A stretch of 64,000 nucleotides of DNA from Babesia bovis T2Bo (lineage: Eukaryota > Apicomplexa > Aconoidasida > Piroplasmida > Babesiidae), in NCBI RefSeq assembly GCF_000165395.2, contig NC_010574.1, positions 434,001 through 498,000 on the forward strand, given 5' to 3'. Below the pieces are notes generated by a model that saw only the letters and a program-made list of their open reading frames with translations, was not told the origin of the DNA and did not search any database. Positions 31,827 through 54,892 of the stretch are shown here, in pieces (positions within the stretch are counted from its first letter, which is position 1; every line of letters starts with the position of its first letter). The position numbers and the translations under genes are program-made.

Positions 31827-31853
31827 TTGACCATGCTTTACTCTTGTCATTAA
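31611..31853 (+). pseudogene. Truncated start of the large secreted gene, copy A
   Basis: The ORF encodes the first 72 residues of the large secreted protein, identical to copies B and C, including the signal peptide (MVMLAVFASVIWALVRSTVA). At 31826, codon 72, homology ends and a short unrelated tail of 8 residues leads to a stop. The result is an 80-aa secreted fragment. It keeps the same upstream sequence as the full genes, so it may still be transcribed. Confidence 0.85.
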
Positions 31854-32006: not shown

Positions 32007-35000
32007 ATATTTACACCTCATCTATGCATAGTTACTCAATGATGTCGTAACAGTTTCAATATTGTATCGTTAATGTTGGACATTGCAGGATCTATCTTAG
32101 GTGTACGTAGGGCTATAAACTGATTGTGCACAGTGACACAACACTGATTTGCAATATGGAATAACCCATGTATACATGAATGCAACATAATTTATTGGCA
32201 TTCAGGGATACCACTATTAAAATAGGGTATCCCACGAATTCTATAAACCCAATACCAATGTCTTATTCCTAAAAATTAAAATATACAGCTATTTTGGGTT
32301 TTTTATATTGCAAATCACAGTATTGCACATTTAAGTTAAATTGCGCCATCATAATTTATTTTGGATACATTCAAAATGTATTCATTGATCCCTGTACCTT
32401 ATTTGCCGAACATCTCCTCCAGTCCTAGTTGACCATAGCCTGAAGATACTGATGGTGCTGTTTTGGCTGGGACGGATTTCACATCAGATACTAACATTTT
32501 CTTTGCATCACTGAGTGATTTGACTTCGGTTTGATCCGTTTGGAAAATATAATCTTTGTAATCAATGCTCTTGTCATGATAGAGAGTTTTTGGCAGGTAT
32601 TTTTGCAACGAAGCAAAATTGCACGTTTCGTTTACCGAGGGCTCAATTGAACCGGGCATTGCCGTTTTATCTTCGCCTTCTAGTACTTCCTTTCCTTTAT
32701 ACGAAAGTCCATATGTTTTCCCTGAAGCTTTATGCTCATCCCCATCATCAAATGACATACAGGCAGCTACAATTATTGGCTGTCTTGCAATCGTTTCATA
32801 TATGTCAAGCATAAATTGGTGAACGAGAAGTTGGAAGATGTTGCCTTTGGTTGTGCAATGAGGCGCTGTTTGTTTGTAAAATTGGATGAATATGTCAACG
32901 GCATCACTCTTTTCAACACGTTTCTTCTTAATAATCTCTGCATTCATAGTGGAAGATACCCTTTTGTCTGCATCGCCTTTTCGAGCACTGATCGTTTCAT
33001 TTAATATGTAATGATCGGGTTCAACGAATCGAGTAACACCTAGCCACAGGTATTCTGGAAAGGTCGACTTTGTAGGTTGTAGCATTGAAGGTTTCACATG
33101 CATACCGAAAGGTTGCAATGTGCACTTTAAAATGTTGTGAATATCAGTATCATTTTTGAACACATATCCCTTAACCATGATGGGTTGTTTATAGGTTGCA
33201 CTCAGTGGAAATTGTTGTTTTTCCTCGTAAGGTTTGTAAGAAATCCATAATTGCTGTAAATCTTTATCATTCATGAACCCTATAACAGAAAAAGATTCGT
33301 TCAATGAATCGGCTTCCATACCACCAAGACCATCAGACAATACGTTCTCAAATGCTGAATTAAATGTATATATCCTTTCAATTTTTTCTTCATCGTTTTT
33401 GATATCACCAGATTCCACATACATTACTTTCCGTTTCTTATGTAAAATTGAAGTTTTCGAGTCATGGTATGAAAATATTATGTCACCAAAAACATTAGGA
33501 ACCCAATCAGATGGCACCTCCTTCATAAACTCTTCTATTGCTTTGAAGCCATCTAAACCACTCTTGCCTTGTGTTTTATATATTTCAGATAGCAGTTTAC
33601 ATGCTGCATCTGAAAATAAGATATGCAATGTATGCTGCATAAACCTTTTGGATTGCATTGCAGCCAACTCATCATGGCTAGGGCCATCATCTAAAGATTT
33701 CAGCTGATATACAGTTCTGTATGTGTAGTGAACACCCGTGTTCTTTGGTAAGCCACTCTGAGCAATTTTCAACGATAAATGATCTAGGTTGGAGATTTTG
33801 GGAGGCAACCACGGTTCTGAGCAATCATGGACCCTGGTCATGAAATATACACCTTTCGTGTTATCTTTGAAACTAATAGATTCTACTTTGTGTTGTTTAG
33901 AGAAACATATTTTATCCATCTCCGTAGATTTTGTGAAACCGCGTAAGGTTACTTCATTTCCTAGGGCAAGCTCATCACTATCATGCTTTAGGTCACTAAA
34001 TTTCGCTACGATGTCGACTAATGATTTCAAAATAGGGCCATCATCATTACCTATGGCCTTTATCTTGAGGCTTCCATAATTTTTAACGTTTTTTTCGCTA
34101 TCCATAATATCTAAGACGAACGTCATTTGTTCACGTTTGCCAATATAACTTTCCAGATTGTACACATAGATGGTTAATTGCTTTTTCATGGAATCCCATA
34201 CATGCTTAACCCTCAAAGACGCTTTGGAAATGACAGCTATATCTTTTTGTATAACTGAAATATCCTTCTCAAAAGTAAACACAAAAGACATATAGCGATA
34301 TACAGTGCTTGTAATTGGAATGACCAATTTTGTTGCGCCGACAACACTAATCAAATACATATTATGTATATAGCCTAGAGCATGATCGTTGTCGATCGGG
34401 GATTTGAAATGCGTCTTGGGTGGACTATTATCTACTATTGCGAATTTCAGCTTGGAAACCCCTCTATATGTATCTTTTTGGAAAATATGTATTCCCCAAC
34501 CTTCCATTGATATGATATCTTGAGGTGTCTTCGAAGATTTGAATGGAATGGTCAACATGTATCCTTCGTAAAAATCAACATATTTGTCATTGAGTTCTTT
34601 TTTATTAAGAACAACATGTATTTGATTTGTCTTTTCGTCATATTGATATACATCAGAAATGTCATATGGGCTAGAATCTTTTGCAGACGCATCGTAATAA
34701 ATTCCATCGTATTTTATGCTATCATAAGGCAAGATAACTTTGACGACACCTCCATCATTCAAATCAACTATTTTTTCACCTAGTGGTATTGTGAGCAAAT
34801 ATTGTGAATTTCTATCCCAAGTAAGAAGCGCATCAACAAAGGGTGTGTTAAAAATCAATTTGGTGTAAAATGGTACGGAATACCCAATATAATTCGTGTT
34901 CTTTTCCCTTCGATCTTTTAATTTTCTCTGAAAAGAAAGCAAATCATCCCTACAAACATTGACCACTCCATCCTTAATCTGCATCGTAAGCTGCTTCCAA

Positions 35001-37352
35001 TTGTTTTGAGACCATTTTTCGACATCTCCTGATTGACTTTTAATTCCCTTCTTATCGTCGATTTTATAAAATAAAGATAACTCCGACATTGGTGGCATTT
35101 GCCATTCGTCATATGAGAGATCAACAGTTATTGTGTACTTTGATGTTGAACCTACAATAGAAGGAAATTTTATATTAATAGCGTGCGAATATGGGTCATA
35201 TGTTATCTTTGAGTCCGGTACTATAGGTTCAACAACCTTCACATACTTATCCAGCGCGAAAACACTAAAATACTGACTGTCACTTGAACTTAGTTTAGGA
35301 AGGAATATCTCTAATTCGTAACCATTCTTATTAATACCCTGCTTAATAAAATGTTGAGGAATCGTATATGAGAACTTCAAAAGATAATTGGTAGAACTTT
35401 GGGGTAAAGTTACGTCAAGGTCAATTTGATTTCTCCTATTTGTAAAATGCATCCAGAACTTTTTGTCAATAACCTTGATACCATGGCATGCCAACACTTT
35501 TGCGTTGATCGATTTAGCGTTTTCGAAGAATCTTTTAGCACTTAAGAAATCGGTATTGATGCACAATGGCTTCACATCAATATTCATGGTAGTTTCTTCA
35601 AGATCCTGAAGGAAACCTACAGTCCAATATACACCATCTTCCTCGCATCCTGATGTAGCATACTTATCGTCGTACGTAAATTCTCCGGTCCAGCTATATT
35701 CTCCTGCTTCGAGATTGGTGACATCGTAAAATTTGAGTATAGCAAATTCACGAAGATCCTTATAATCAGCACTACAACCAGCTGTCTCCTTTGTAATACT
35801 TTCCTCGAAGTATACATTTAAATCCTTCTGAAGTGATTTGTCTAATTTAGTTAACATCTCAACAAAATGTGGTTTCTTACATTTACTTAAATTGAAACCT
35901 AAATCTACATCGCTGTATGCATTTAACAGTTTATCTTTCGGCCACCCTAACAAATCTGGACGTTTAATATCACCTTTCCGTTCAAAGCTATATATATGTC
36001 GCTGAAACACAAGGCCATTTGGTGGCAACAACACCAATTTCATTTCTTGAGTCCCTAATCCTGTCTTTAACGGCGTTGGCAGAACGAATTTGAATGTGAC
36101 GTTGACTTTATTTCCAATTTTCGCAACATCGGTAATGTCGTACATTATCGTTGGTGTGAACAAGTTTTTACAAACGTCTATGGATCCTTCCATACAGGAT
36201 TTAGAAATAGTACTAGACGCCACGGTTGAGCGAACTAGTGCCCAAATGACACTAGCAAACACAGCTAACATCACCATTTTTATATTATATTTACTGCAGT
36301 TATATGACTAATCAGAACCATGCGGCTAGACCTATGTACAGATTCCCTGTATCGACAGTAGCTGCCAGAAGTAAGAAACCTTTTCAACTTCTCAAAATTT
36401 CAATCAGCGTCTGGACATTTAATTGCACGAGACTGATGTGAAACATATAAGAGGCGTGTTAATGAACGTAGTTATGTGAGGACATGTGGCATACTCTGGA
36501 GTACATTTTTTAGATACGGCGGTAAGTACAGGATTTGTACGTGCTGCATCGAAAGATATATACAAATTGTGACGCATACAACACATATATCGAGTTCAAT
36601 CATTGATCATAGGGCGCAATATAACGTAACAATATGGTACAAGAATTTTAACGCCTAGATCTAGACCGTGGAAGAAGGGTTTGCGGTTGTCGCCGTGCAT
36701 CAACGCCATCTGCCATTTTCGGGGTATACAAACACACATTCTGCAGTATGCTGCTAGATTAAGACTCTAATAGGTGTTATTTGTAGTGTCCTTTTCTGGT
36801 TCACGAGCCACCTGAGCATGGTGTCTGGCATAACTCTTGAGTAATCCTTTACCTGGTCTAATGTGTGGAGTTAGTGTTGTGTAATTTGTGGCATGAAAAA
36901 GGTGTAACCGCAGTAGTTTGATGTGTGCTATTGTTGTTGTTTTTGGACTGTGTCTTGTGTGTCGCCTGCCGCTTTTATTACATGGTCCTGTGTTCGATGG
37001 TTGTGTCTAAGCGCGCATCTTCCTTTGTGGCGTCTACTAGGGTGGATTCCGATGTATCTCCAGTTTCCCACCAATGGCCGTTCATTGAATCTGAAGTCCG
37101 TCGTATTCTTGGTTCATGTCATATATTCAGTTCTGGCAGTGAGGTGGTGTTGTGTGATTCCAAGGTATGTTCGGGATATTGCACGGTAATGTAGCCACTC
37201 CAGGTTACAAAGTGGTTACGAGTACTGTCGACTCTACACTCCCGCATGGGTCGTATGAGCGCAGGTAATCAGATTATGGTTTGCGGCAGTGGTATGCTAC
37301 CTCATTACATCACTAATCACTCACTAGGCGACATTGCAGCATGTGAAATGAT
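32007..37352 (-). repeat. Copy B of the duplicated unit, inverted (5.35 kb)
   Basis: The reverse complement matches copy C (49,927-55,284). It starts in the 3' flank of the large gene (about 390 bp beyond the stop codon, nearly identical to C) and covers the full large gene, the shared promoter and the first part of PLD. It ends at 37352, 149 bp into PLD exon 2. Intergenic and terminal coding parts are almost identical to C, while several internal coding blocks are strongly diverged (see the large gene entries). Confidence 0.93.
32399..36277 (-). CDS. Large secreted protein, paralog B (1,292 aa), unknown family
   Basis: A single exon encodes 1,292 aa with a signal peptide in the first 20 or so residues and no transmembrane segment or GPI-type tail, so a secreted or organelle-stored protein is likely. 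No known domain was recognised. It is collinear with paralog C (51,008-54,892). Residues 1-91, 132-266, about 576-605, 680-1037 and the last 186 are nearly identical to C. Residues 92-131, 267 to about 575, about 606-646 and about 1038-1106 differ greatly. In the last 186 residues only two differences were seen. Lys and aromatic residues are frequent, and cysteines are few and mostly in conserved blocks. Transcription is toward copy A. Confidence 0.93.
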   Translation of the reverse strand: MVMLAVFASVIWALVRSTVASSTISKSCMEGSIDVCKNLFTPTIMYDITDVAKIGNKVNVTFKFVLPTPLKTGLGTQEMKLVLLPPNGLVFQRHIYSFERKGDIKRPDLLGWPKDKLLNAYSDVDLGFNLSKCKKPHFVEMLTKLDKSLQKDLNVYFEESITKETAGCSADYKDLREFAILKFYDVTNLEAGEYSWTGEFTYDDKYATSGCEEDGVYWTVGFLQDLEETTMNIDVKPLCINTDFLSAKRFFENAKSINAKVLACHGIKVIDKKFWMHFTNRRNQIDLDVTLPQSSTNYLLKFSYTIPQHFIKQGINKNGYELEIFLPKLSSSDSQYFSVFALDKYVKVVEPIVPDSKITYDPYSHAINIKFPSIVGSTSKYTITVDLSYDEWQMPPMSELSLFYKIDDKKGIKSQSGDVEKWSQNNWKQLTMQIKDGVVNVCRDDLLSFQRKLKDRREKNTNYIGYSVPFYTKLIFNTPFVDALLTWDRNSQYLLTIPLGEKIVDLNDGGVVKVILPYDSIKYDGIYYDASAKDSSPYDISDVYQYDEKTNQIHVVLNKKELNDKYVDFYEGYMLTIPFKSSKTPQDIISMEGWGIHIFQKDTYRGVSKLKFAIVDNSPPKTHFKSPIDNDHALGYIHNMYLISVVGATKLVIPITSTVYRYMSFVFTFEKDISVIQKDIAVISKASLRVKHVWDSMKKQLTIYVYNLESYIGKREQMTFVLDIMDSEKNVKNYGSLKIKAIGNDDGPILKSLVDIVAKFSDLKHDSDELALGNEVTLRGFTKSTEMDKICFSKQHKVESISFKDNTKGVYFMTRVHDCSEPWLPPKISNLDHLSLKIAQSGLPKNTGVHYTYRTVYQLKSLDDGPSHDELAAMQSKRFMQHTLHILFSDAACKLLSEIYKTQGKSGLDGFKAIEEFMKEVPSDWVPNVFGDIIFSYHDSKTSILHKKRKVMYVESGDIKNDEEKIERIYTFNSAFENVLSDGLGGMEADSLNESFSVIGFMNDKDLQQLWISYKPYEEKQQFPLSATYKQPIMVKGYVFKNDTDIHNILKCTLQPFGMHVKPSMLQPTKSTFPEYLWLGVTRFVEPDHYILNETISARKGDADKRVSSTMNAEIIKKKRVEKSDAVDIFIQFYKQTAPHCTTKGNIFQLLVHQFMLDIYETIARQPIIVAACMSFDDGDEHKASGKTYGLSYKGKEVLEGEDKTAMPGSIEPSVNETCNFASLQKYLPKTLYHDKSIDYKDYIFQTDQTEVKSLSDAKKMLVSDVKSVPAKTAPSVSSGYGQLGLEEMFGK

Positions 37353-37395
37353 GAAAACGTTTTTGATATTTCTGTATGATTTTTATTTATTTTAA
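36982..37395 (+). pseudogene. Truncated PLD gene start in copy B
   Basis: Exon 1 (36982-37164), the 39-nt intron (37165-37203) and the first 149 bp of exon 2 match the PLD gene at 48,629-50,303. Homology ends at 37352 after IAACEM, and 14 unrelated codons lead to a stop at 37393-37395. Neither HKD catalytic motif is included, so this is a broken copy. It keeps an intact start and splice sites and the shared promoter, so it might be transcribed as a peptide of about 124 aa. Confidence 0.8.
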
Positions 37396-38114: not shown

Positions 38115-40253
38115 CTACACTTTGGTAAACATCCCCCAGGTAAATGATTTACAGGGAGATCTTGATTCTTTCTTAGTTTTACAACCCATGGTATGTTTAT
38201 CGCATGTATCAAATGATTTTGTGACACCCCAACACCCGTTAATACCTTTGAAGATTTAATAATGGCTTTGCTTACTTACCGGTTAATATAGGCATATTTT
38301 CCCCGATCTTTACAATCTGTTCTCCATAATCCGACTGACATAGTGTAGAAGTACGCTGAAAATTGTGAACGTAAAACAAACATATATAATACCCCAAGTC
38401 CCGGAAGACGCTCGTCAATGCAGACTGCCCATATATGAGTTTCCAATGATGAATTGCTTCTGCATAGATCAGCACCAGTGTGGCAGGGAATAAGATTTGC
38501 CAAACTTTTGTCTTTCTCGGGTGAACTTTCTGCTATAAAACCAGTGAGGAGTTTGTAACCCGATAAACATTTCACCTCCTTTTCCGAGTTTGACGCATCA
38601 AAATTATGAGCGTATTGCATAACATTTAGACCCATGGAACTCCCGCACAACATCCAAATAACAATATCGCATTTCTTTTGCCGTTCTTTCGAGCAACTGT
38701 ATGCATCCGTTGGACATTGATATACGCTAAATGTGCGTTGTTCTATCTCCATTTCCAGAATGAAGCCGAAAATAACTTTATCATTGTGAGGGCAATCCAA
38801 TTTGACGATATCATCATCTGTATTAACCAGCACAAGTGCTGTTGACATGTTAATTATACTTTCAACGTTTAACGTAGTGCCATTATGTTGATGTACAACC
38901 CAAGGCAGAGCACCATTGAGCTTTATATAGAAGTTTAAAGCGTTCCTGTACGCCTCTTTGTATGAGGAATGAATAAACATATCCAAGGGTGCATAAATAG
39001 TTCTTATTGGCATAGGGAAAATCGGTACTGTAGATTTCCACTTAAGCAGGGAATCTGGAGTCATATTTTTATTAAAATGAATACCCCCTAAAACACTGAA
39101 TTTTAACGACGAACCATCTTGCAGTTCTTTGATAGCCTTTTGTTGTTCGGAATTGAGCTTTTCATTAACTTCTAGTAGTGCACCAGAAATGACAGCTTTA
39201 ACTGCAACGTCCACATTTAGGCCACTTTTTAAAAATGAATCCATAGCATTGTTTGGGATAGTCAGCAAGCGAATTATCTTTCCTCCTGTTGCATTTTAAA
39301 CTATTTATCACTCCTGATCTTACCCAATTGTATTTCAGTTGTAACGTGGGTACCGAATTGGAGGAAAAAGTCAACCCACTTAGAAATAGATCCGCATTTC
39401 TTAGATTTTTTCTTATACAACTCCACAGTACATTGATCGAATGACTTGACTTCTTTAGGCAGCTCATTCAACGCAATATCAAAATCACTGGTTGTCTCCC
39501 TTCAAAAGGTGTAAAATTTATGTAATCGCATACCAATTGAAGTACGGTGGCATTCCAGCTGCATATGTAAAACAGTAGTACGAATTTGTGTATTGTTTGC
39601 TTGATATGTGTTGCGTTTTACCAGAAATATCTGTATAACCGGCACGAAGGGCTCCACTTCCCAAACCTGATGACATTGCGAACCCTCCAAAATCAAATTG
39701 CGTAGATTCTTCATTTGTGCTCTGTTGTGAACCAACTGTAACCTGCGTTGTATTTGCAGCAATTGTAATGCGTACATACGGTTTCCGATTCTCCACAAGC
39801 AGTTATTGGTCTTACCCAACCTCCCAAAGGCTGAAGCCATTTCAAGCTATTGGTTACCCCAACGTCAGATTTCGCCCAGTAAAAATCTACAATTGGAGAA
39901 CGGTGTCCAAGGTCATCTCCATTATTAATAGAGACCAAACCGCTTGCTTTCACTGCATCGTAGCCACTTCCAAGATACTCTATTTCTTTATATGATCGAT
40001 CAAAATACTAACCTAGGCCACTGACGATCCGATCAGCACTAAATATTACGTTCGATTCGTCTGATATATCATTTTTGATGGTAGAATATTCATCGTTCGT
40101 AGCTATAAAAACATAAGTTTATAATGTAGGTCTAATGCGTTTTTACATTTTTGAATAGAACTCACAAACATTAAGAGTTTCATTAGTTTGTGCTAATACA
40201 ACTAAAAGTGATTTCGCCAGGATTATTGAGAATATGAGTAAAAATATCACCAT
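38115..40253 (-). CDS. Perforin-like protein 1 of this window (MACPF domain)
   Basis: Eight exons give about 616 aa: 40253-40166, 40102-40013, 39979-39780, 39742-39534, 39487-39324, 39285-38393, 38355-38280 and 38245-38115, with introns of 33-63 nt. A signal peptide covers roughly residues 1-22. The MACPF domain begins at about residue 60 (EYLGSGYDAV) and contains the family signature FGTHVTTEIQLGG (about 238-251). A cysteine-containing C-terminal region with repeated SGY/IWAVC type elements resembles the beta-rich domain of apicomplexan PLPs. Known family members are stored in micronemes and permeabilise host membranes in egress or traversal. The last two exons are the least certain. The start lies 95 bp after the stop of the RNA polymerase I gene on the same strand. 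Confidence 0.85.
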
Positions 40254-40347
40254 TTTATTACTACCGATAATATTGTAAACCACAAATGCGTGCAGTAGAC
40301 ACCCGAGTCATAGACTCAGACGGGACACTTCCATTTAAGATAACATA

Positions 40348-43300
40348 TCAACTGTCTATAGGAAGACCCAATTGAGATAGGTGCAACCTAATTCCCACGT
40401 TTATAGATGCTAATTCATGGGCCACGTATCTAAAAGTGTTGAATGTTTATTTTTAAGTGACTTACCTAAGGACGTAAGGAATTGTTACCAACTTACATGC
40501 GACTTTACATATTCTACAATGAGAAACGGATCGCTTGTTCGTAGCACCAACAGATGTGACGGTTGCCGATATTATGGAACCACAATTGGGACACACATAT
40601 GCTGTATGAGCGTCAGAGCAATGGATTAACCGGTCTTGAAGTAGCGCAGAAGCACCGTGGGCAATTAAAGAGTCGCGTTCCATTTCACCAAAACGAATAC
40701 CACCGCGATTTTTCCTTCCCTTTACTGGCTGCTTGGTAATGGCATCCACTGGTCCAGTAGCACGAACCTAAATATGTACATAACTAGGGAATAAGGCACC
40801 AACCTGCGCTTTGTCCGATACCATGTGGCGCAGACGCTGGTAAAATATGCAGCCGATGAATATATGTGTCCTTATTTCGGTGCCTAGCGAACCACAATAC
40901 ATACTCTCCGTACCATAGTAGTCGTAACCGGCCTGCAACAATGTTTTTCCAAAGTAGTCAATGACGTCATCTTCTGTTTTGCTTAACTCCTCTTCTTTTG
41001 ACATATATCTAAAACCACGTTCTTCCCAACCTGATTAATTATTTCTATAGGAACACATACTGACCTTTTAAGCCGCCGTGATCAATCCACTTGTTTCCTG
41101 TTGCCATTTGTTTTGGGTACTTTCTGAAGCATGTGGCATCCTGGAATGCCCCGTGTATAGCAGCTGACTTACCCGCCATACATTCAATTAACTTCCCTAT
41201 TGTCATACGAGACGGTAAACCATGTGGATTGAAAATAATGTCAGGAATTATTCCAGACTCAAGGAAAGGCATATTCTCAGCTGGCCAAGCCATGGAAAGG
41301 ATGCCCTTTTGACCATGTCTACTCGCAAATTTATCACCCACAATGGGATTGCGTACGATTCGGAATTTTATAGTAGCTCTAGTTCCTTTGATGTTTGATG
41401 CATTTGGCATTTCAGCCACGCTAGCGTCATTGCAACCTATTATTGTAACCTGGTCTACAATGGCATCTTCATCGTGATATTTCTCTACACGATCGCTTAT
41501 TTGTTTGCTGCCTCCAACCTTCTCATGAGACTCTATACGACATATTGGGGTTCCTTTCTTAACTCTGGCACCAACATTTGGCAACCCGTCTTTATCTAAG
41601 GACGCAATAATCTTAGAACCCAAATGATTAGTGTTCGCAAAGTAATGCTGATTTCCCCGGGATCTACCATTAGCAGGCATGGCATCAATGACTTTACTTT
41701 TATATATGCAGCCATGGAATGCTCCCCGATCAAGGGAAGATTTATTGATAATCATAGCATCCTCCATGTCGAAACCAGTGTGAGCAATTACGGCTACTAC
41801 TGCATTCATACCTGTAGGATAATCTTCATAATTCATTTGTCTAAACTCCGTAGTTGTGACCAAAGGTTTCTGTGGAAATAACAACCTATATGCTTTTACA
41901 TCTGACCTAAATTGCTCACAATGATATGGTACACCCATACTCTGTTTTAGCATTTGGCACTGATACATGTTTCTAGGACTTTGATTGTGATTGCTAAAAG
42001 GAGTTAAAGCGGCTGTTACTGACAAAATTGCAGATGGGGATACTTCCATATAGTCGTATTTTACTGGAACGTTATCAATCACCTTTTTAACCGGTGAAAC
42101 TGCATGGTCAGATGAGTTATCATGCATCAAAGCTTCATCGATGGAGAGTGTTTTACATTTTCCTTCTGCATTGCTAGCAACCATTTGGTGAGATATTCTA
42201 GCTTCTTCTTCAGACACTGCAATTGTAGACCACAATTGAGTAATTGGGCCAATCCATTCAATTTCCCCTGACGTAAGACATATAACTGGCCTTATAACTC
42301 TTCCTGGATAGGTTAATATCATTATACTGGTGTATTCTCCTTTTACATCAGGTGATGCTACTATTTCGTAGTGTTCTTTTAGCCCAAACTTCCCGTAACG
42401 TTTTGCCAATTTAATTTCATCATAAAGTTTGGGCGCTTCATTGATGGGTAAAGTACACATTGGAACTCCGTCAACAATTACGTGTATTCTTTTTATATGT
42501 TGCGCATCATGGGTTACAAAATCTGTTACAGTTTCGTGTCCAGTGAAATCCACAGAGTATCCATGGGTACGCAATAATGACTTTACAGCCTCTGCAGCAC
42601 CCTCACAATCAGTAGCAGTTACTGGTACAGCATACTGAGCCAAATGAAGTAACAATCCACAAGGGGCGCCATCAGGGGTATGTACAGGGCAGATGAACCC
42701 CCAAGTTTCACCTAACAATTTTCGTACCTCTGTAGAGCGCATTTTAGCAAATAAACTCCCTCTATGAAGTGATCTAAAGTGACTCATGAATCTGTGGTAG
42801 TTGATGCGTTCTGCGACAACTGTGAGTCCAGATGACTGAGTTAACTCAAAATGCATATTGGTAGCATTGCCTGTGGCCAAAAAAGAATGCAGTTTTTTAG
42901 GAATATCGCTGGCTACTTTTTCAACAGCATAACTGAATAATTCTGGTTTTTCCAATAACTTCTCTAAGAGTTCCTTTTGTTCATGCGATTGTAAATCTAC
43001 ATCTATCAATCGCCTCTTGGAATGCCTTGTTGCATCGCCGCTAATATTTTTGCATAACTCTAACAACTCAGCATGATATATAGATCGTATTTTTAATAAT
43101 GCTACATATAAACTCTCCTTTAAAATACATGAATATATTTGCCCTGGTAGCAAGAGTTCTTGAAATGCAAAAGAATCATAGTTTTCTGTCTGTATCTCTC
43201 CACGGGAGACTTTAATAAGCTTCTTGAACATGTACAAGAGAGTTTCAAATTTTTCTGCATTTGTTTTAGCTTGAAGTAAGACATAATGTCTGAGAAAGTA

Positions 43301-44904: not shown

Positions 44905-46592
44905 ATGGCGATATATGGCACTGGGATTGCTTCGAAGAAGCGTGTTCTCTTATCGCGTCAGCACTGTGAGTTGAAAAGAGCTGACTTGGAAATGGCTTTG
45001 TCATGCTTTAATCGAATGGTTGAGAAAAATGGTAAGTTAATTGGGATCCTAAAAACATTTTTGTTATTTCAACGTAGATAGCGATTTTACTTATGTGGAA
45101 ACTGAGGGCATTCGTTTTGTCTATCAACCTGTCGACGACTACTACGTCTTTGTTATGACGTCCATTGACTCTAACATTGTGCGTGACATAGGAATAGTGC
45201 ATACACTTGCGGAAATTGTACAGGTATACGGTTGTGTTAATGTTTTGATGACACTTTTACAGAGCCTGCTTCAATCTGATATTGATGAAGGTGTCCGTGA
45301 ACAATTTTTTGATATCATTTTTTACATGGATGAACTAATTACGAACAAACAACCGGAGGATTTGACAATTGATCAGATTAAGGAATATATATTAATGGAT
45401 TCCCAAGAGGAGAAGAAACACAATATTATCCGGTCATCTAAAGAGAAAGAAGAAAAGGAGCGGCGTAACCAAATGGCTGCTAAAATTGAAAAACACAAAC
45501 AGTTGGATGCCTCTTTCGTGGAAAAGTTCTCTGATACTGTTGCTTTTGGTTCACCATCGGTTGTTGAACGCAGTATGCCTGTAGTTTTACAAGACCAGCT
45601 AATGGACTCAGGGGTGAAGCTTTCTATCAACCGGGTACGTTTTTTGTTAATACTACCATCTGTTTTACAGTTAAATTACAACACTTCCAATTTGGGATTA
45701 CAATCTGTAAAACATGCCAGTGCTGCTAAGAATGGTCATGATGCGGAAAGTATCGAACTACTGGAAGCTGAGGCCCCGGTGGTAATAAAAGTTGTTGAAA
45801 TGTGTACGGGGAATATTCACATGGAAGGAGGTAGGAAACATAAATCATGTGTTGCAATAATGATGCTACAGATGTTGATTTTCTTAACGTGCAAGGAGAG
45901 TTAATGTTAACAATATATGAAGAAAGTGCCCGTATGGTTGGATTCTCCTTTGTGGCCAACCCAGAATTTAAAATGCGCTTTCATCCAATAATTAACAAGG
46001 AAACGGCGTCTAAGAATATAGTGGAACTGCAAAATTCACATCAGGGTCATAAAATTGGGCATTCCACATCGCTTGTTAAATGGAGGCAAAAGTCAACAGA
46101 TGAGGTATGGCACATAAACCACATTGTAGATAAATAAATATTCAGACATCGTTCCCTTTGAGTGTAAGTTGTTGGCCTAACACAAATTTAGGTCAAACAA
46201 CGGTTACTGTAGAGATTCAAAACAATTCGGATGCCGTGATCAATTCTGTGAATTTTCAGATCTTAGACTCGAGATTTAATCAGATCATCGTGAACTCTCA
46301 TGACCTTGGGAACATTGAACGCAATCATGATGCTTTGAATTGGGTACTAGGCAATTTATGTCCGCAACAGTCTGGTCGTGTAGAATTAACCACGAATGGT
46401 GACCTGGATTCTATACTGCCTTTTACATTGGTTGCAAAGGTTTCTAACTCCGTGGCACAGTTAAACGTAAGTATTATTCAAAGCACTGTAGAATCTCATT
46501 TAGGTGACACGCTGCTACGACATGACCAGCGGGGTTCCTTTAGAATATGTTCTCAAGACGGAAACATCATTCTCGATGACTATTGGAAGTGA
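44905..46592 (+). CDS. Coatomer subunit delta (delta-COP, ARCN1/RET2)
   Basis: Six exons give 494 aa: 44905-45031, 45078-45223, 45263-45634, 45671-45830, 45872-46104 and 46146-46592, with introns of 46, 39, 36, 41 and 41 nt. Two introns (39 and 36 nt) have no in-frame stop, so retention would go unnoticed in an ORF scan. The N-terminal longin-like domain reads KKRVLLSRQHCELKR and FTYVETEGIRFVYQPVDDYY. An EEK/KEKEEK helical linker follows, then a mu-homology domain (VDFLNVQGELMLTIYEE, SLVKWRQKSTDE, FPLSVSCWPN). Delta-COP is part of the COPI coat of Golgi-to-ER vesicles. Confidence 0.94.
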
Positions 46593-46601
46593 AGGCACTT
46601 A

Positions 46602-48422
46602 ATGTCTTTATTATATATTATAGTTATATATGTGTGCTGTATTTACAATGGTTACTCATATAGAATAAGACAATTCGATGTTCGAATAAGCCAACCAACC
46701 CATACAAATTCTACGTTCAAATGGAAGTGCAACAAACGTGTTAAGCGAAGCTGTATGAAATATCGTTATGTGTGTGATGATGGAGAAGTCCTGCTTCCAC
46801 GAACGGCAAAGCATAGATCGCTGATTTGCAATTTGTTACAAGATGCTACAACTGAAAGGAAATATGTCAATCCCACAGATATACTAAATCGATTCAAAAA
46901 CATTGCAAATGGATGTTCTTTTGAATATATAAGGTCTCTATTCCTGGATATTTTCCGGTGGTTCTCCTTCCGCAAAAATGAATTTATTTCTAGTGTTCTA
47001 TTCCATGAAATTCGGAAGGAATTTATTGCTAAACAATCTTTTTTTGGTAGAATATATTCTCGTATATTACGGAGAGAATTCAAGTTTTCGGAGTGTTACA
47101 AACAATCCGATCATTTCTCCACTATCAATTATTACGTAAAATGGAATTGTGGAAATATTGTTTTGGAGGAACAATGCCTAAATGACGTGTTAAATGCACG
47201 ATGGCTGGACTGTTCAACAGTCGTATTAAATAGATTGTCCCATTTAATTAAAGCTCCGGATGTGGTTGATGTTCTTAGTTATATATTTGGAAGGGCGAAG
47301 GTTAAAATCCCCTTGCATAATAATGAAGTTGTACAGCGTAGACCGAAACTGGTAAAATCTACGGGAGCATTGTGGCTGTTGGCAGTTTTAAAAAGCACCA
47401 AAAGTGACCACATAATAAAACAAGTTCATGGCATCTCGCATACCTTATTTCATCGATTTTTACGAGACAGTAAGTTAGATAACTGCAAAAAAAATCTTTT
47501 GAATGGCGCATACCTGTCATATGGGCATGTAGTCGTGAAACTTATACGGCATATTAGCCGACTGGTGCAAAGCATATCCATTGCAGTTACAAACACAGGA
47601 AGTACTATGAATCATTTACACTATGAAGAAAGTAATACAACATCGGACGAATTATTTGTTTTGCAGCTTTTGGCAAAGCAAGAGCTGTTTAGAAGAAATC
47701 ATGACGTAAACACTCTTCTATCAGGGTTATACGATATGGTTCGGTATCTTGAAATTAAAAAATGCGCACCATCCAGTAGCAACGAATTACGTGCTTATCT
47801 TGAAGTGTTGATGCAATCCGTTTGTATCCCATTTTTCCGTGTGGTGGTTAGGGGTTTGTCCTTCGATAGGAACAATTTCAAAAAAATCATACAGATACTA
47901 CAAACCATCACTGAACAGTATAAAGGTGAATCGCATGAATTTTACTTTCCACGCTTCGCCGTTGAAAAATTTACATCTTATGGTATGTCTGAATTCTGTG
48001 TGCTGTTGAACTATGAGAAGCAAAAGGAGAATAACTTATACGATGCGTTTGCTATCCTAAAAGGTGAAAAACACACATATTTATATCGTTTTGGTGATGG
48101 TTCCTTCGTTGCTTCCACAGATACAAGTTTTATGGATCATTGGAACATATACCGCTCTTGTTCTTTAGTGGGTTCTGTTAGATGCCAATTAGTTATAAAA
48201 CCGTATTCATCAATTGCAATGGATAGCATTTCTCAATATGTAGACATTTTAAAACGGAGAATTTCAAGCGAAGTCGTATCTGCTGTAGAATTCGACAATG
48301 TAGTTAACATACATTTTCCTAGGAATACCAGTTCATGTACCTTGTCTAGGTTCAAGCTTAATGTTCAGAAAGATTTGATTCAACATCCCATTCATAAGTA
48401 CATTGCAATTATGATAGAGTAG
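46602..48422 (+). CDS. 606-aa protein with N-terminal signal peptide, unknown
   Basis: Single-exon ORF of 606 aa whose ATG lies only 9 bp after the delta-COP stop codon. It begins with a strongly hydrophobic segment (MSLLYIIVIYVCCIYNGYSY) that looks like a signal peptide. A region rich in Lys, Arg, Thr and Asn follows, which could be an apicoplast transit peptide; that targeting is inference. The rest is basic and helical, with no motif I can name. No further membrane segment is evident. Candidates include an apicoplast RNA-binding or expression factor, but nothing shows this directly. The mRNA 5' UTR must lie within the delta-COP gene or be extremely short. Confidence 0.75.
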   Translation: MSLLYIIVIYVCCIYNGYSYRIRQFDVRISQPTHTNSTFKWKCNKRVKRSCMKYRYVCDDGEVLLPRTAKHRSLICNLLQDATTERKYVNPTDILNRFKNIANGCSFEYIRSLFLDIFRWFSFRKNEFISSVLFHEIRKEFIAKQSFFGRIYSRILRREFKFSECYKQSDHFSTINYYVKWNCGNIVLEEQCLNDVLNARWLDCSTVVLNRLSHLIKAPDVVDVLSYIFGRAKVKIPLHNNEVVQRRPKLVKSTGALWLLAVLKSTKSDHIIKQVHGISHTLFHRFLRDSKLDNCKKNLLNGAYLSYGHVVVKLIRHISRLVQSISIAVTNTGSTMNHLHYEESNTTSDELFVLQLLAKQELFRRNHDVNTLLSGLYDMVRYLEIKKCAPSSSNELRAYLEVLMQSVCIPFFRVVVRGLSFDRNNFKKIIQILQTITEQYKGESHEFYFPRFAVEKFTSYGMSEFCVLLNYEKQKENNLYDAFAILKGEKHTYLYRFGDGSFVASTDTSFMDHWNIYRSCSLVGSVRCQLVIKPYSSIAMDSISQYVDILKRRISSEVVSAVEFDNVVNIHFPRNTSSCTLSRFKLNVQKDLIQHPIHKYIAIMIE

Positions 48423-48628
48423 GTACGGTAAGGTTTATGTATTGAGTACACAAGTGATCAAGATGCTCCTTCTAAATTATCGGATATATAAATTTTCTCA
48501 ACTGCTTCATATCATTTGTATAGAACACCACAGGCCTGATGTGCCCATGCATAATAAGCAACTAGTATTTCGAAAAATAGTGATATAATTCAAGGATTCA
48601 TGTTTTGTCTTTCTTCATCATCCCCAAA
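48423..48628. other. Short convergent intergenic region
   Basis: About 200 bp between the stops of the 606-aa gene (plus) and the PLD gene (minus). Nothing notable was seen. Confidence 0.4.
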
Positions 48629-50303
48629 TTAGACAGATGCCATATTTGATATAGCCACTATCTGGCTAGCATTATCGTCTATGAACGTACGAATAAATGC
48701 TTTCTTGAACTTGGCCTTGAATTCGGCACTTGAAAGGCCATCAAAACAGTTCCGTGAAGAAAACCTGATTAGCTTATGAATAAGTGCATCAAAGCATTTT
48801 AACATTATAGGACGGTTTAAGCAATCTTGTTTTGTGTATTCTATGGATTTTTTTTCCTTTTTTTGTTGTAAACTTTTGAGTTGTAATGCTGTTATAGGGT
48901 CAAACACACTAACGGACACCTCTAGGTTTCGTCTACTAGACCATCTATCCCAATTGAAACTACCGACAGAACTCCATAAATCATCTACTATCATATATTT
49001 CCCATGGCAATGTTCTTGGGTTGTCATAAATACCTTAAATTTATGCAATGTCTGCTCTGATATCCTTTTCTGTGTCACTGTTAATGCATCTATAAAAACA
49101 TACGAAAAACTTCCTAAGAACATGCATAGTAGCGTTAACATCACCAGGTATATCTGAATTGCCTGATAACAGCATGTGAATGCTGAGATTACGCTTTATA
49201 GCGTCCATAAGACATCGGCGAAGAAATCCGGGGGGATAAAAATAACTCGTTGTTAAGTATATGTTGTTTTCAGCCTTTATATAGATGTTTGAACATGCAG
49301 ACAACCAACGTTGGATATTAAAGTCGAAAGATATGATTGAATACCTGTGCGCCTCCTAATTCTAGACACATCAGATTCAAGTACCTGTACTATAACACCC
49401 CCCTCGATTGGAGTTGCAGGGGTACATCTAATATTGCTAATGTCATAATCAGTCATTTCCAGGGTCCTTTTAAATATATCCACGAAGTCGCAGACCACAG
49501 GACCACAAGCTCGAATGTTGACATCATAAAAATTACCATTTCCTCCCATCATAGGAGTCGTAGAGTCCGCAGAAATATTCATAGAACCACAAAAAGCAAT
49601 GCGATTGTCTACTATAAGGACTTTTTTGTGGTTGCGAAAAGGAAATGTCCCGACGGCTAGATTTCTGTCGGTAACAGGATTGAATGTGAGAACTTCAACT
49701 CCGTATTTTGTTAACTCGTTGAGATATAACGAGGGAAACTTGAACGAACCAACCTATATCAATATAAAACGCCTACAATTGACAAACGTAATCAACTACA
49801 AGGGTAACCCTGCATCCTCTTCTCGAAGCATTCACCAGCGCCGTGACAAATCTTGCAGCCAAACGTGAGTCATCAAAAATATAAACTTCCATAAGTACTC
49901 GTTCAACTGCTTCATCGATTGCTTTAATCATTTCACATGCTGCAATGTCGCCTAGTGAGTGATTAGTGATGTAATGAGGTAGCATACCACTGCCGCAAAC
50001 CATAATCTGATTACCTGCGCTCATACGACCCATGCGGGAGTGTAGAGTCGACAGTACTCGTAACCACTTTGTAACCTGGAGTGGCTACATTACCGTGCAA
50101 TATCCCGAACATACCTTGGAATCACACAACACCACCTCACTGCCAGAACTGAATATATGACATGAACCAAGAATACGACGGACTTCGGATTCAATGAACG
50201 GCCATTGGTGGGAAACTGGAGATACATCGCAATCGGAATCCACCCTAGTAGACGCCACAAAGGAAGATGCGCGCTTAGACACAACCATCGAACACAGGAC
50301 CAT
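48629..50303 (-). CDS. Phospholipase D-superfamily protein (cardiolipin-synthase-like), intact copy
   Basis: Five exons give 511 aa: 50303-50115, 50075-49788, 49753-49310, 49274-49145 and 49113-48629, with introns of 39, 34, 35 and 31 nt. Two HxKxxxxD (HKD) motifs are present: NHKKVLIVDN in exon 3, followed by FCGSMNIS, and CHGKYMIVDD in exon 5, followed by SSVGSFNWDRWSSRRNLEVS. AIDEAVERVLMEVYIFDDS in exon 2 and AENNIYLTTSYFYPPGFLRR in exon 4 fit bacterial-type cardiolipin synthases and related PLDs. The two motifs normally build one active site for phosphatidyl transfer or phosphodiester hydrolysis. The first in-frame ATG is at 50303; upstream codons hit a stop. The gene is head to head with the large secreted gene C, 704 bp apart. 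Confidence 0.88.
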
Positions 50304-51007
50304 GTGATAAAAGCGGCAGGCGACACACAAGACACAGTCCAAAAACAACAACAATAGCACACATCAAACTACTGCGGTTACACCTTTTTCATGCCACAAA
50401 TTACACAACACTCACTCCACACATTAGACCTAGTAGAGGACCACTCAAGAGTTATGCCAGACACCATGCTCAGGTGGCTCGTGAATCGGAAAAGGACACT
50501 ACAAATAACACCTATTAGAGTCTTAATCTAGCAGCATACTGCAGAATGTGTGTTTGTATACCCCGAAAATGGCAGATGGCGTTGATGCACGGCGACAACC
50601 GCAAACCCTTCTTCCACGGTCTAGATCTAGGCGTTAAAATTCTTGTACCATATTGTTACGTTATATTGCGCCCTATGATCAATGATTGAACTCGATATAT
50701 GTGTTGTATGCGTCACAATTTGTATATATCTTTCGATGCAGCACGTACAAATCTGATAATGATCGACGTATCTAAAAAATGTACTCCAGAGTATGCCACA
50801 TGTCCTCACATAACTACGTTCATTAACACGCCTCTTATATGTTTCACATCAGTCTCGTGCAATTAAATGTCCAGACGCTGATTGAAATTTTGAGAAGTTG
50901 AAAAGGTTTCTTACTTCTGGCAGCTACTGTCGATACAGGGAATCTGTACATAGGTCTAGCCGCATGGATCTGATTAGTCATATAACTGCAGTAAATATAA
51001 TATAAAA
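50304..51007. promoter_or_regulatory. Head-to-head promoter region of PLD and large gene C
   Basis: 704 bp between the start codons of divergent PLD (minus) and the large secreted gene (plus). It must carry both promoters. The same block is present at 30,907-31,610 (A) and 36,278-36,981 (B). Small ORFs in it are shared by all copies and are not supported as genes. A 10-bp AT-rich run (AATATAATAT) precedes the large-gene start. Confidence 0.6.
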
Positions 51008-54000
51008 ATGGTGATGTTAGCTGTGTTTGCTAGTGTCATTTGGGCACTAGTTCGCTCAACCGTGGCGTCTAGTACTATTTCTAAATCCTGTATGGAAGGA
51101 TCCATAGACGTTTGTAAAAACTTGTTCACACCAACGATAATGTACGACATTACCGATGTTGCGAAAATTGGAAATAAAGTCAACGTCACATTCAAATTCG
51201 TTCTGCCAACGCCGTTAAAGACAGGATTAGGGGCTCAAGAAATGAAATTGGTGTTGTTGCCACCAAATGGCCTTGTCTTTAATAAAAGTATTAGTATGCT
51301 TTCGAAAGGCAATACGTTTGACACAAAACAACTGGAAGCACTGACGAAGGATACGGCGTTGGACTATTACAGTGAAGTGGATCAGAGTTTTGATTCAGGT
51401 AAATGTAAGAAACCACATTTTGTTGAGATGTTAACTAATGTAGACAAATCATTTCAGAAAGATTTAAATATATACTTCGAGGAAAGTATTACAAAGCATA
51501 CAGCTGGTTGTAGTGCTGGTTATAAGGATCTTCGTAAATTTGCTATACTCGATTTTCAAAATGTCACCAATCTAGAAGCCGGAGAATACAACTGGACCGG
51601 AGAATTTACATACGACGATAAGTATGCTAAAGCAGGATGCGAGGAAGATGGTGTATATTGGACTGTAGGTTTCCTTCAGGATCTTGAAGAAACTACCATG
51701 AATATTGATGTGAAGCCATTGTGCATCAATACCGATTTCTTAAGTGCTAAAAGATTCTTCGAAAACGCTAAATCGATGAACGCAAAAGTGTTGGCATGCC
51801 ATGGCAAACGTTTGTATCATAAAAATCTCTTTTCATTTTTAGATGGCCAATCTTTATTGGATGATGTGGAATTTGTTTATGTTCCTCCTCCAAAAGGTCC
51901 AAAGTGGATTTTATCGTATCACTTACCTTGGAGTGTAGAGAAAGAAGATAAATTTAAGAATGGCTACACGTTGGCCATTTATCTTAATGGAATTAAAAGA
52001 GGTGCAATTGGCCTCTATAACCATGATACAGTGAAAAATAACGTCAGTGTAGTGCGACCGAAAGATATTAGGAAGGATTTTAGCTATGATGGCAAAAAGC
52101 ACATCATATATATTTCGTTCCAAAAATATGATAACATTTATACCCATTATGAGATTCAAATTGATTTAAAATATTTGTTAAGTAGAATAGATTTAATGGG
52201 TACAATAGACGTATTTTTTCTTAAAAACGCGGAGAAACAAATCAGCAAGCATGTGGGATATGATACAAGGGCTTGGATTGCATCAAAGAAGCAGTTATTT
52301 CCTAAAAACGTTAAAGAAACCGTCATAAATGAATGCACAACGATGTTGACTGACATTTATAGTATGTATAACTATAAAGAATTGTATGGATATACACTAC
52401 CGGTTTTACACTCTAAGACATTGCAAATGGGTACAACCACTTCACTATCGGAAGATTCTATATTATATAGATATGAAATAAATAAATACTTGTTAATCAT
52501 AGAACTTTTTGACAAGGATATTAAGCCTGAAGAAGGAGGGTTTGTAATTATTAAAGTTCCTGACATCGATTACGTATTAGAGGAAACCTTTACCAATATA
52601 TTTTCATGGAAAAATGAAACGGTATATCTGAACCAGGTATATCAATATAATCAGACAGGGGAAATTAAGGTGGTTTTAAACAGGGTGAACGGTCTCTTTG
52701 ACGCTGCAGATTACAAATATTATCATGTTATCATTCCATTCAAATCTTCGAAGACACCTCAAGATATCATATCAATGGAAGGTTGGGGAATACATATTTT
52801 CCAAAAAGATACATATAAGGGGTATATTCCTCTGAAAATAAGGATAGACGATAAAGCGAAGTTGGATACAGATACAGATACAGATAAAGTGAAACGTGCG
52901 TTGCATGGAAATGTAGGTCAAATAAGTATGATTTCTACTACAATGGCGACAAAATTGGTCATTCCAATTACAAGCATTGTATATCGCTATATGTCTTTTG
53001 TGTTTAAATTTGACGAAAACATTCCTGATATACTATATGATGTCACTGTCATTTCCAAAGCGTCTTTGAGGGTTAAGCATGTATGGGATTCCATGAAAAA
53101 GCAATTAACCATCTATGTGTACAATCTGGAAAGTTATATTGGCAAACGTGAACAAATGACGTTCGTCTTAGATATTATGGATAGCGAAAAAAACGTTAAA
53201 AATTATGGAAGCCTCAAGATAAAGGCCATAGGTAATGATGATGGCCCTATTTTGAAATCATTAGTCGACATCGTAGCGAAATTTAGTGACCTAAAGCATG
53301 ATAGTGATGAGCTTGCCCTAGGAAATGAAGTAACCTTACGCGGTTTCACAAAATCTACGGAGATGGATAAAATATGTTTCTCTAAACAACCAAAAGTAGA
53401 ATCTATTAGTTTCAAAGATAACACGAAAGGTGTATATTTCATGACCAGGGTCCATGATTGCTCAGAACCGTGGTTGCCTCCCAAAATCTCCAACCTAGAT
53501 CATTTATCGTTGAAAATTGCTCAGAGTGGCTTACCGAAGAACACGGGTGTTCACTACACATACAGAACTGTATATCAGCTGAAATCTTTAGATGATGGCC
53601 CTAGCCATGATGAGTTGGCTGCAATGCAATCCAAAAGGTTTATGCAGCATACATTGCATATCTTATTTTCAGATGCAGCATGTAAACTGCTATCTGAAAT
53701 ATATAAAACACAAGGCAAGAGTGGTTTAGATGGCTTCAAAGCAATAGAAGAGTTTATGAAGGAGGTGCCATCTGATTGGGTTCCTAATGTTTTTGGTGAC
53801 ATAATATTTTCATACCATGACTCGAAAACTTCAATTTTACATAAGAAACGGAAAGTAATGTATGTGGAATCTGGTGATATCAAAAACGATGAAGAAAAAA
53901 TTGAAAGGATATATACATTTAGTTCAGCATTTGAGAACGTATTGTCTGATGGTCTTGGTGGTATGGAAGCCGATTCATTGAACGAATCTTTTTCTGTTAT

Positions 54001-54892
54001 AGGGTTCATGAATGATAAAGATTTACAGCATTTATGGATTTCTTACAAACCTTACGAGGAAAAACAACAATTTCCACTGAGTGCAACCTATAAACAACCC
54101 ATCATGGTTAAGGGATATGTGTTCAATGACAAACCATTAATGGATAAAAGCTGGGAATGTTTAATACATCCTTTTGCTTATCCTTTACAGCCCAGTAAAC
54201 AGAGGTTAGGTACAAACTATGTTTCCTGGGTTCTTTTCCACGAGATGGTCAACAACACCTCACCGAAAGATAGTGCTGTAAATATTTTAAATTACGTCAT
54301 AAATGCTACAAAGGTGGTTAAAGACAAAAAGGTATCTTCCACTATGAATGCAGAGATTATTAAGAAGAAACGTGTTGAAAAGAGTGATGCCGTTGACATA
54401 TTCATCCAATTTTACAAACAAACAGCGCCTCATTGCACAACCAAAGGCAACATCTTCCAACTTCTCGTTCACCAATTTATGCTTGACATATATGAAACGA
54501 TTGCAAGACAGCCAATAATTGTAGCTGCCTGTATGTCATTTGATGATGGGGATGAGCATAAAGCTTCAGGGAAAACATATGGACTTTCGTATAAAGGAAA
54601 GGAAGTACTAGAAGGCGAAGATAAAACGGCAATGCCCGGTTCAATTGGGCCCTCGGTACACGAAACGTGCAATTTTGCTTCGTTGCAAAAATACCTGCCA
54701 AAAACTCTCTATCATGACAAGAGCATTGATTACAAAGATTATATTTTCCAAACGGATCAAACCGAAGTCAAATCACTCAGTGATGCAAAGAAAATGTTAG
54801 TATCTGATGTGAAATCTGTCCCAGCCAAAACAGCACCATCAGTATCTTCAGGCTATGGTCAACTAGGACTGGAGGAGATGTTCGGCAAATAA
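51008..54892 (+). CDS. Large secreted protein, paralog C (1,294 aa), unknown family
   Basis: A single exon encodes 1,294 aa with a signal peptide and no other membrane segment. I recognise no domain. Against paralog B, residues 1-91 (one difference), 681-1039 (three differences) and 1109-1294 (two differences) are almost identical; 132-266 is about 88% alike. Residues 92-131, 267-575, 606-646, 667-680 and 1040-1108 are so different that only scattered positions align. The divergent block at 606-646 includes a GATACA hexamer run coding DTDTDT. Cysteines cluster in the shared blocks, suggesting a common fold with variable surfaces. It shares its promoter with PLD and its 3' flank with copy B. 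A secreted antigen or invasion-related role is inference only. Confidence 0.93.
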   Translation: MVMLAVFASVIWALVRSTVASSTISKSCMEGSIDVCKNLFTPTIMYDITDVAKIGNKVNVTFKFVLPTPLKTGLGAQEMKLVLLPPNGLVFNKSISMLSKGNTFDTKQLEALTKDTALDYYSEVDQSFDSGKCKKPHFVEMLTNVDKSFQKDLNIYFEESITKHTAGCSAGYKDLRKFAILDFQNVTNLEAGEYNWTGEFTYDDKYAKAGCEEDGVYWTVGFLQDLEETTMNIDVKPLCINTDFLSAKRFFENAKSMNAKVLACHGKRLYHKNLFSFLDGQSLLDDVEFVYVPPPKGPKWILSYHLPWSVEKEDKFKNGYTLAIYLNGIKRGAIGLYNHDTVKNNVSVVRPKDIRKDFSYDGKKHIIYISFQKYDNIYTHYEIQIDLKYLLSRIDLMGTIDVFFLKNAEKQISKHVGYDTRAWIASKKQLFPKNVKETVINECTTMLTDIYSMYNYKELYGYTLPVLHSKTLQMGTTTSLSEDSILYRYEINKYLLIIELFDKDIKPEEGGFVIIKVPDIDYVLEETFTNIFSWKNETVYLNQVYQYNQTGEIKVVLNRVNGLFDAADYKYYHVIIPFKSSKTPQDIISMEGWGIHIFQKDTYKGYIPLKIRIDDKAKLDTDTDTDKVKRALHGNVGQISMISTTMATKLVIPITSIVYRYMSFVFKFDENIPDILYDVTVISKASLRVKHVWDSMKKQLTIYVYNLESYIGKREQMTFVLDIMDSEKNVKNYGSLKIKAIGNDDGPILKSLVDIVAKFSDLKHDSDELALGNEVTLRGFTKSTEMDKICFSKQPKVESISFKDNTKGVYFMTRVHDCSEPWLPPKISNLDHLSLKIAQSGLPKNTGVHYTYRTVYQLKSLDDGPSHDELAAMQSKRFMQHTLHILFSDAACKLLSEIYKTQGKSGLDGFKAIEEFMKEVPSDWVPNVFGDIIFSYHDSKTSILHKKRKVMYVESGDIKNDEEKIERIYTFSSAFENVLSDGLGGMEADSLNESFSVIGFMNDKDLQHLWISYKPYEEKQQFPLSATYKQPIMVKGYVFNDKPLMDKSWECLIHPFAYPLQPSKQRLGTNYVSWVLFHEMVNNTSPKDSAVNILNYVINATKVVKDKKVSSTMNAEIIKKKRVEKSDAVDIFIQFYKQTAPHCTTKGNIFQLLVHQFMLDIYETIARQPIIVAACMSFDDGDEHKASGKTYGLSYKGKEVLEGEDKTAMPGSIGPSVHETCNFASLQKYLPKTLYHDKSIDYKDYIFQTDQTEVKSLSDAKKMLVSDVKSVPAKTAPSVSSGYGQLGLEEMFGK

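What the first reader, a model, noticed from the sequence alone, without database searches (positions are those of the whole stretch)
32399..54892. Two large secreted paralogs are a mosaic of near-identical and highly diverged blocks
In paralog C, residues 681-1039 differ from B at 3 of 359 sites and 1109-1294 at 2 of 186. Blocks 92-131, 267-575, 606-646 and 1040-1108 barely align. The promoter and 3' flank are also near-identical. Sharp switches between these states inside one exon cannot come from uniform drift. They fit gene conversion keeping some segments alike while other cassettes are swapped or under strong diversifying selection, as in parasite antigen families. Total length stays within two residues (1,292 and 1,294).
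Basis: partly seen in the sequence, partly recalled or inferred. Interest (0 to 1): 0.9.

Follow-up and report, generated by a model that had tools for sequence, protein, structure and literature searches.

The report
Two mosaic paralogs in Babesia bovis
A cattle parasite seems to carry two secreted-protein genes that are almost identical in most stretches but very different in a few, and silent DNA changes show the different stretches are far older than the rest, so the genes look stitched together by recombination rather than changed by gradual mutation.

Summary
Observation confirmed. Genes B (32399-36277, -) and C (51008-54892, +) share a roughly 99% identical backbone, interrupted by blocks of 20-25% amino-acid identity. 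The blocks are far older than the backbone; recent diversifying selection alone cannot do this, recombination can. All 15 cysteines match. The four duplication edges examined are sharp, and PLD-like frames continue past the repeat only at C, so C looks parental. A truncated third copy A (30619-31826, +), not mentioned in the finding, differs from B at 1 of 1208 sites. Genome searches with the two main blocks found no donor close enough to detect, and protein searches no outside relative. Best reading: an inverted duplication, probably in Babesia bovis, carrying blocks from anciently diverged lineages, much as in Plasmodium DBLMSP/DBLMSP2.

The parts
32399..36277 (-). gene B, 1292 aa, signal-peptide-like N-terminus, no other membrane-like stretch by a simple hydropathy scale
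51008..54892 (+). gene C, 1294 aa, 71% overall identity to B
30619..31826 (+). copy A: about 1 kb of the upstream repeat plus codons 1-72; 1 mismatch in 1208 to B, 17 mismatches and 6 gap columns to C; reading frame then ends at 31853
49923..51007 (+). C upstream repeat; an open frame of the PLD-like gene (opposite strand) crosses the repeat edge at 49923
36278..37356 (-). B upstream repeat, 19 differences in 1079 aligned sites to C; the PLD-like frame is cut at its edge
54893..55284 (+). C 3' flank shared with B
32007..32398 (-). B 3' flank shared with C (1 difference in 391)
51281..51400 (+). C divergent block residues 92-131 (10 of 40 identical)
51401..51637 (+). C intermediate block residues 132-210 (dS 0.12, dN 0.088)
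51806..52732 (+). C divergent block residues 267-575 (70 of 301 identical)
34550..35479 (-). B counterpart of the long divergent block (B residues 267-576)
52733..52822 (+). near-identical island, C residues 576-605: 0 synonymous changes in 27 informative codons
52823..52945 (+). C divergent block residues 606-646 (8 of 41 identical)
53048..54124 (+). C near-identical block residues 681-1039 (356 of 359)
54125..54331 (+). C divergent block residues 1040-1108 (15 of 66 identical)
32960..33157 (-). B counterpart of the 1040-1108 block
54332..54889 (+). C near-identical block residues 1109-1294 (184 of 186)
48629..50084 (-). PLD-like gene (open frames with PLDc matches; gene model inferred), head to head with C; used to polarise the duplication

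Best explanation
B and C are a recombinational mosaic of one secreted-protein gene, most probably of Babesia bovis. A segment running from inside a PLD-like gene, through the gene, to about 390 bp past its stop was duplicated in inverted orientation from the C site (inferred). The backbone's common ancestry is recent (about 0.6% divergence outside the 5' flank, 1.8% in it; shown). The divergent blocks carry sequence lineages far older than the backbone (shown). They were most likely brought together by homologous or segmental gene conversion from other alleles in the parasite population or from a paralog since lost (inferred; no donor was found in this genome). Both versions keep fold-level constraints (all 15 cysteines, near-equal length; shown), so both probably encode working proteins whose divergent blocks are the exposed or ligand-facing parts (inferred). 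Retention of two ancient versions in cis suggests balancing or diversifying selection on those blocks, as for malaria dimorphic antigens (inferred, untested).
For: Three age classes in one ORF: pS about 0.01-0.07, dS 0.12, and near saturation. A near-identical island between saturated blocks: 0 of 27 informative codons changed, P 2.5e-10 under the long block's rate, the island being picked after seeing the data. Backbone divergence excluding the 5' flank is homogeneous: 16 of 2608, P 0.28. The four duplication edges examined are sharp. The PLD-like frame continues past the repeat only at C. A-B identity at 1207 of 1208 shows a further recent copying event. Eight of the ten segments inside the coding sequence are 39-234 bp long, of the order of the 109 +/- 39 bp mean tract of B. 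bovis segmental gene conversion (passages of PMC7485966).
Against: Only one genome: no isolate shows B-type and C-type blocks as alleles of one site. Sharp edges can also persist in old inverted repeats kept alike by conversion (recalled example: mammalian Y palindromes). The 5' flank is more diverged (19 of 1079) and clustered, and adding it makes the backbone non-homogeneous (35 of 3687, P 0.03). The tiny divergent stretch 667-680, left out of the 57 of 101, has 0 of 4 informative codons changed. The segmental-conversion tract lengths were measured in ves genes, not here, and one divergent segment is 954 bp.
Confidence: 0.55

Rival explanations
1. Ancient inverted paralogs with continuing partial gene conversion: the two genes are old, and backbone and flanks have been repeatedly homogenised while functionally distinct blocks escaped because converted forms were selected against.
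For: The same saturated-versus-identical pattern. Inverted copies 14.7 kb apart could convert each other. A-B at 1207 of 1208 shows recent exchange or copying at the locus. The 5' flank is more diverged than the rest. All 15 cysteines are retained in both.
Against: A truncated PLD fragment, presumably useless, stays 98% identical right up to a sharp edge. Islands of 58 and 86 bp sit between saturated blocks, where pairing should be hard. Backbone divergence outside the 5' flank is homogeneous.
Confidence: 0.32
2. Recent duplication followed by very strong diversifying selection on exposed blocks, without imported sequence.
For: Divergent blocks are discrete and the protein length is kept. In block 606-646 dN exceeds dS (1.34 vs 1.01).
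Against: Synonymous sites in the blocks are saturated (57 of 101 codons) next to blocks with 5 of 700. Selection on amino acids does not do this.
Confidence: 0.02
3. Assembly artefact: blocks of two loci or two strains wrongly joined, or copy A is a spurious duplicate.
For: The near-identical backbone segment of 1081 bp is longer than an ordinary Sanger read (recalled), so which block 1040-1108 goes with which N-terminal part could be misphased. A is almost identical to B. I do not know how this assembly was made.
Against: Both ORFs are open over 1292 and 1294 codons. Misassembly could not create the divergent blocks themselves. The B and C sites have different outer flanks.
Confidence: 0.05
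4. The locus is an active recombination device: the A-B inverted repeat and the B-C inverted genes flip or exchange segments during growth, generating new block combinations outside the ves system.
For: A 1208-bp inverted repeat with 1 mismatch flanks the body of B, and both arms carry the same first 72 codons, so a flip would leave the ORF intact. Backbone identity between B and C on both sides of block 1040-1108 would allow exchange.
Against: A flip alone would not change the protein. No population or time-course data were available. Only two block sets were found in the genome.
Confidence: 0.06

Closest known systems
Plasmodium falciparum DBLMSP / DBLMSP2 (PMC10919680, abstract and passages seen; PMC13088805, abstract seen)
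   Same: Two paralogs in one genome, deeply diverged sequence lineages in defined modules flanked by conserved sequence, and non-allelic gene conversion as the proposed cause.
   Different: No DBL or other Pfam match here. In DBLMSP the shared part is the variable domain between otherwise diverged genes; here the backbone is shared and the blocks differ. No population data here.
Babesia bovis ves1 genes and segmental gene conversion (PMC7485966, PMC4066756, PMC6630957, PMC12064010, PMC9047050; passages seen)
   Same: Same species (inferred), mosaic genes, and segments of similar length.
   Different: ves has over 100 copies, many acting as donors, and membrane-bound products. Here two full genes and one 5' fragment were found, one ORF each, with no membrane-like stretch beyond the N-terminus.
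Plasmodium falciparum MSP1-type allelic dimorphism (mentioned in PMC10919680; block scheme recalled)
   Same: Alternating conserved and deeply diverged blocks in one gene.
   Different: There the two forms are alleles of one locus; here both forms lie in one genome as inverted paralogs.

Membership tests
ves1 / VESA1 | large multigene family with many donor copies | tested here: not met
   Full-length search found 3 places (B, C, fragment A); searches with two block pairs found no further place
ves1 / VESA1 | integral membrane protein | tested here: not met
   Hydropathy shows only the N-terminal signal-like stretch as strongly hydrophobic; a simple scale, not a dedicated predictor
ves1 / VESA1 | match to a curated VESA profile | tested here: not met
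   Pfam scan at E up to 10: 0 families for both proteins; that Pfam holds a VESA model is recalled
smORF | small secreted protein lying within ves clusters | tested here: not met
   1292 and 1294 aa; Pfam-matched neighbours are RNA polymerase, MACPF, PLD-like, DHHC and Slu7 genes, but not every ORF was scanned
6-Cys | s48/45 domain (recalled as defining) | tested here: not met
   No Pfam match of any kind
Gene-conversion mosaic paralog pair (works like DBLMSP/DBLMSP2) | segments of recent and of ancient common ancestry alternate within one coding sequence | tested here: met
   Synonymous test
Gene-conversion mosaic paralog pair (works like DBLMSP/DBLMSP2) | block types shared between the two loci across isolates | not testable with these tools
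   states the genome has no relatives here, and the protein searches returned one copy of each protein
Gene-conversion mosaic paralog pair (works like DBLMSP/DBLMSP2) | surface-exposed antigen under balancing selection | not tested
   No expression, serology or population data

The most novel reading that the evidence does not exclude
Babesia bovis runs a second, ves-independent sequence-diversifying locus: a large secreted protein encoded by two inverted genes plus a spare 5' end, kept recombining through near-perfect inverted repeats, so that anciently diverged blocks are reshuffled by short-tract conversion on a constantly refreshed backbone, with the alternative blocks stored in the population rather than in the genome.
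Probability: 0.15. Interest if true: 0.78.

Novelty: new variant of a known kind. Interest (0 to 1): 0.56.

Why it matters
If right, B. bovis uses short-tract recombination on at least one gene pair outside the ves family, and carries deep sequence dimorphism of the sort seen in malaria surface antigens. The pair is a compact natural experiment, with two genes, a shared backbone and segments of different age. It bears on how such dimorphism arises, and these proteins would be worth following when strain-specific immunity in cattle is studied.

Tried and rejected
Relatives: three protein searches (full length at E up to 0.001, residues 690-1040 at E up to 1, two-sequence profile at E up to 10) returned only the window's own two proteins. 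A scan of viral contigs found none. No solved structure matched at E up to 1 and no Pfam family at E up to 10. One limit: the protein search needs shared 5-residue words, and I did not test whether other Babesia proteomes are held.

Donor cassettes: blocks 267-575 and 1040-1108 of both genes were searched in the whole genome at E up to 10. The long blocks found each other (E about 1e-11); the 1040-1108 blocks did not, so a donor as far off as B is from C there would be missed. Blocks 92-131 and 606-680 were searched only as part of the full-length C query.

Base composition of the blocks against the backbone gave no clear sign of foreign origin: GC 0.32-0.40 against 0.38. Internal repeats inside the proteins, tandem repeats and RNA families (one tRNA, far from the genes) led nowhere. 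The 180 bp between A and the B 3' flank match nothing else in the window beyond chance-level hits.

Considered and rejected: recent positive selection alone, uniform drift, chance alignment of unrelated blocks, membership of ves, smORF or 6-Cys.

Literature: searches on neighbouring gene tags found, among tags beginning BBOV_II0019 and BBOV_II0020, only the two PLP genes (passages). Only open-licence main texts were searched, not supplements, and the tag numbers for B and C are my inference. Passages of PMC7701181, PMC4425553 and PMC3826834 were seen and not used as evidence.
Full report
What the window is. The window is C2:434001-498000 of a genome of 8,234,832 bases in 8 contigs; the contig that holds it is 1,729,419 bases long. 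It holds two stretches with MACPF matches. In the literature B. bovis has BBOV_II001970 (named PLP5) and BBOV_II002020 (named PLP4) a few gene tags apart on chromosome 2 (PMC7522308 table passage; PMC9806345 table passage; that the II in a tag stands for chromosome 2 is recalled). I therefore take the organism to be Babesia bovis. This is an inference; no tool named it. On that reading B would be near BBOV_II001960 and C near BBOV_II002010; those numbers are mine and no paper searched holds them.

B (32399-36277, -) and C (51008-54892, +) are single open frames of 1292 and 1294 codons. In C numbering the blocks read as follows, as aligned identity and pS. Residues 1-91: 90 of 91, 0.016. 92-131: 10 of 40, 0.76. 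132-210: 66 of 79, 0.11. 211-266: 55 of 56, 0.03. 267-575: 70 of 301, 0.74. 576-605: 29 of 30, 0.06. 606-646: 8 of 41, 0.55. 647-666: 19 of 20, 0.07. 667-680: 4 of 14, 0.54. 681-1039: 356 of 359, 0.007. 1040-1108: 15 of 66, 0.89. 1109-1294: 184 of 186, 0.008. The 5' flank differs at 19 of 1079 sites and the 3' flank at 1 of 391.

The divergent blocks look homologous. Block 267-575 aligns at E 5e-15. The shuffles were not realigned, which favours the real alignment. All 15 cysteines sit in matching columns, including C443 and C1051 inside divergent blocks.

The decisive test. Complete saturation under the genes' own codon usage predicts 59.6. In the near-identical blocks the count is 5 of 700, and in the intermediate segment 5 of 64. 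The short stretch 667-680, in neither group, has 0 of 4. Fisher's exact test gives 4e-53 for divergent against near-identical and 6e-4 for intermediate against near-identical. Amino-acid selection cannot saturate silent sites in one block and spare the next, so the blocks must have separate, older ancestry. Two islands inside the divergent zone, picked after seeing the data, make the same point: residues 576-605 show 0 synonymous changes in 27 informative codons, and 647-666 show 1 in 18 (P 2.5e-10 and 9.5e-6 under the rate of the long block).

Anatomy of the duplication. The shared segment starts inside a PLD-like gene transcribed away from C. Three open frames there have weak to clear PLD matches. 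The frame 49773-50084 crosses the repeat edge at 49923, and its PLD match lies almost wholly beyond that edge. At B and A the frame is cut and runs into unrelated sequence. So the B and A flanks look like copies of the C site (inference; the gene model rests on open frames). Homology stops within a few bases at the four edges examined. Copy A holds about 1 kb of upstream repeat and codons 1-72, differs from B at 1 of 1208 sites and from C at 17 with 6 gap columns, and lies inverted to B with 4235 bp between the arms. Genome searches with the promoter repeat found C, B and A only, and with the 3' flank C and B only.

History. Outside the 5' flank the backbone diverges evenly (16 of 2608, P 0.28), as after one recent event. 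With the 5' flank included, evenness fails (35 of 3687, P 0.03), because that flank has clustered differences such as 7 within 13 bp at 50754-50766. A recent inverted duplication whose copies carry blocks from older lineages is the simplest account. The main rival is an old pair kept alike by conversion, for which sharp edges are not impossible. I put them at 0.55 and 0.32. No donor for the two largest block pairs was found elsewhere in the genome. A donor as diverged as B and C are from each other in block 1040-1108 would have been missed, since those two did not find each other. If tracts were imported, the source was probably another allele in the population or a lost paralog.

Mechanism. 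In B. bovis ves genes, segmental gene conversion moves tracts averaging 109 +/- 39 bp with junction homology of a few bases or none in the examples shown (PMC7485966 passages; PMC9047050 passage). The ten segments inside the coding sequence here are 122, 234, 172, 954, 86, 131, 58, 39, 1081 and 195 bp: eight of ten fall at 39-234 bp, two are far longer. Segment lengths are not the same thing as conversion tracts, so this is a resemblance. The passages I saw on segmental conversion in B. bovis describe ves genes (of 49 papers holding the terms, 15 were listed). I saw no claim for another gene, but did not read these papers whole.

Function. Both proteins begin with a signal-like stretch and have no other strongly hydrophobic segment by a simple scale. 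No family, solved structure or relative was found. I infer a secreted protein whose conserved parts do the structural work and whose divergent blocks face a varying partner, host antibody or receptor. This is unproven.

Comparison. It works like DBLMSP/DBLMSP2 of P. falciparum, where gene conversion between diverged paralogs is proposed to create deep lineages (PMC10919680, abstract and passages) and where discrete modules flanked by conserved regions are described (PMC13088805 abstract). It is not a member of ves, smORF or 6-Cys on the tests listed.

Limits. One genome; no isolates; no structure; possible misphasing of block 1040-1108 across a 1081-bp near-identical segment if the assembly used short reads.

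Noticed in passing
30619-31826 and 36062-37269: A 1208-bp inverted repeat with one mismatch surrounds the body of gene B; since both arms carry the same first 72 codons, inversion would leave the ORF intact.
   Followed up: partly
50754-50766: In the otherwise near-identical upstream repeat, 7 differences fall within 13 bp, and a 6-bp indel lies at 50226.
   Followed up: no
31611-31853: Copy A encodes an 80-aa ORF with the same signal-like N-terminus before a stop.
   Followed up: no
41045-43696 and 61200-63986: Two different genes for second-largest RNA polymerase subunits lie about 17 kb apart on the same strand.
   Followed up: no
46602-48422: A 606-aa ORF with, by eye, a signal-like start and no Pfam match lies between B and C.
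   Followed up: no
38276-39268 and 57040-57992: Two MACPF (perforin-like) genes lie one beside each paralog; they show no DNA similarity to each other in the self-comparison.
   Followed up: partly
45053-45904: ORF that by eye resembles a coatomer delta subunit (recalled resemblance; no Pfam match to this piece).
   Followed up: no
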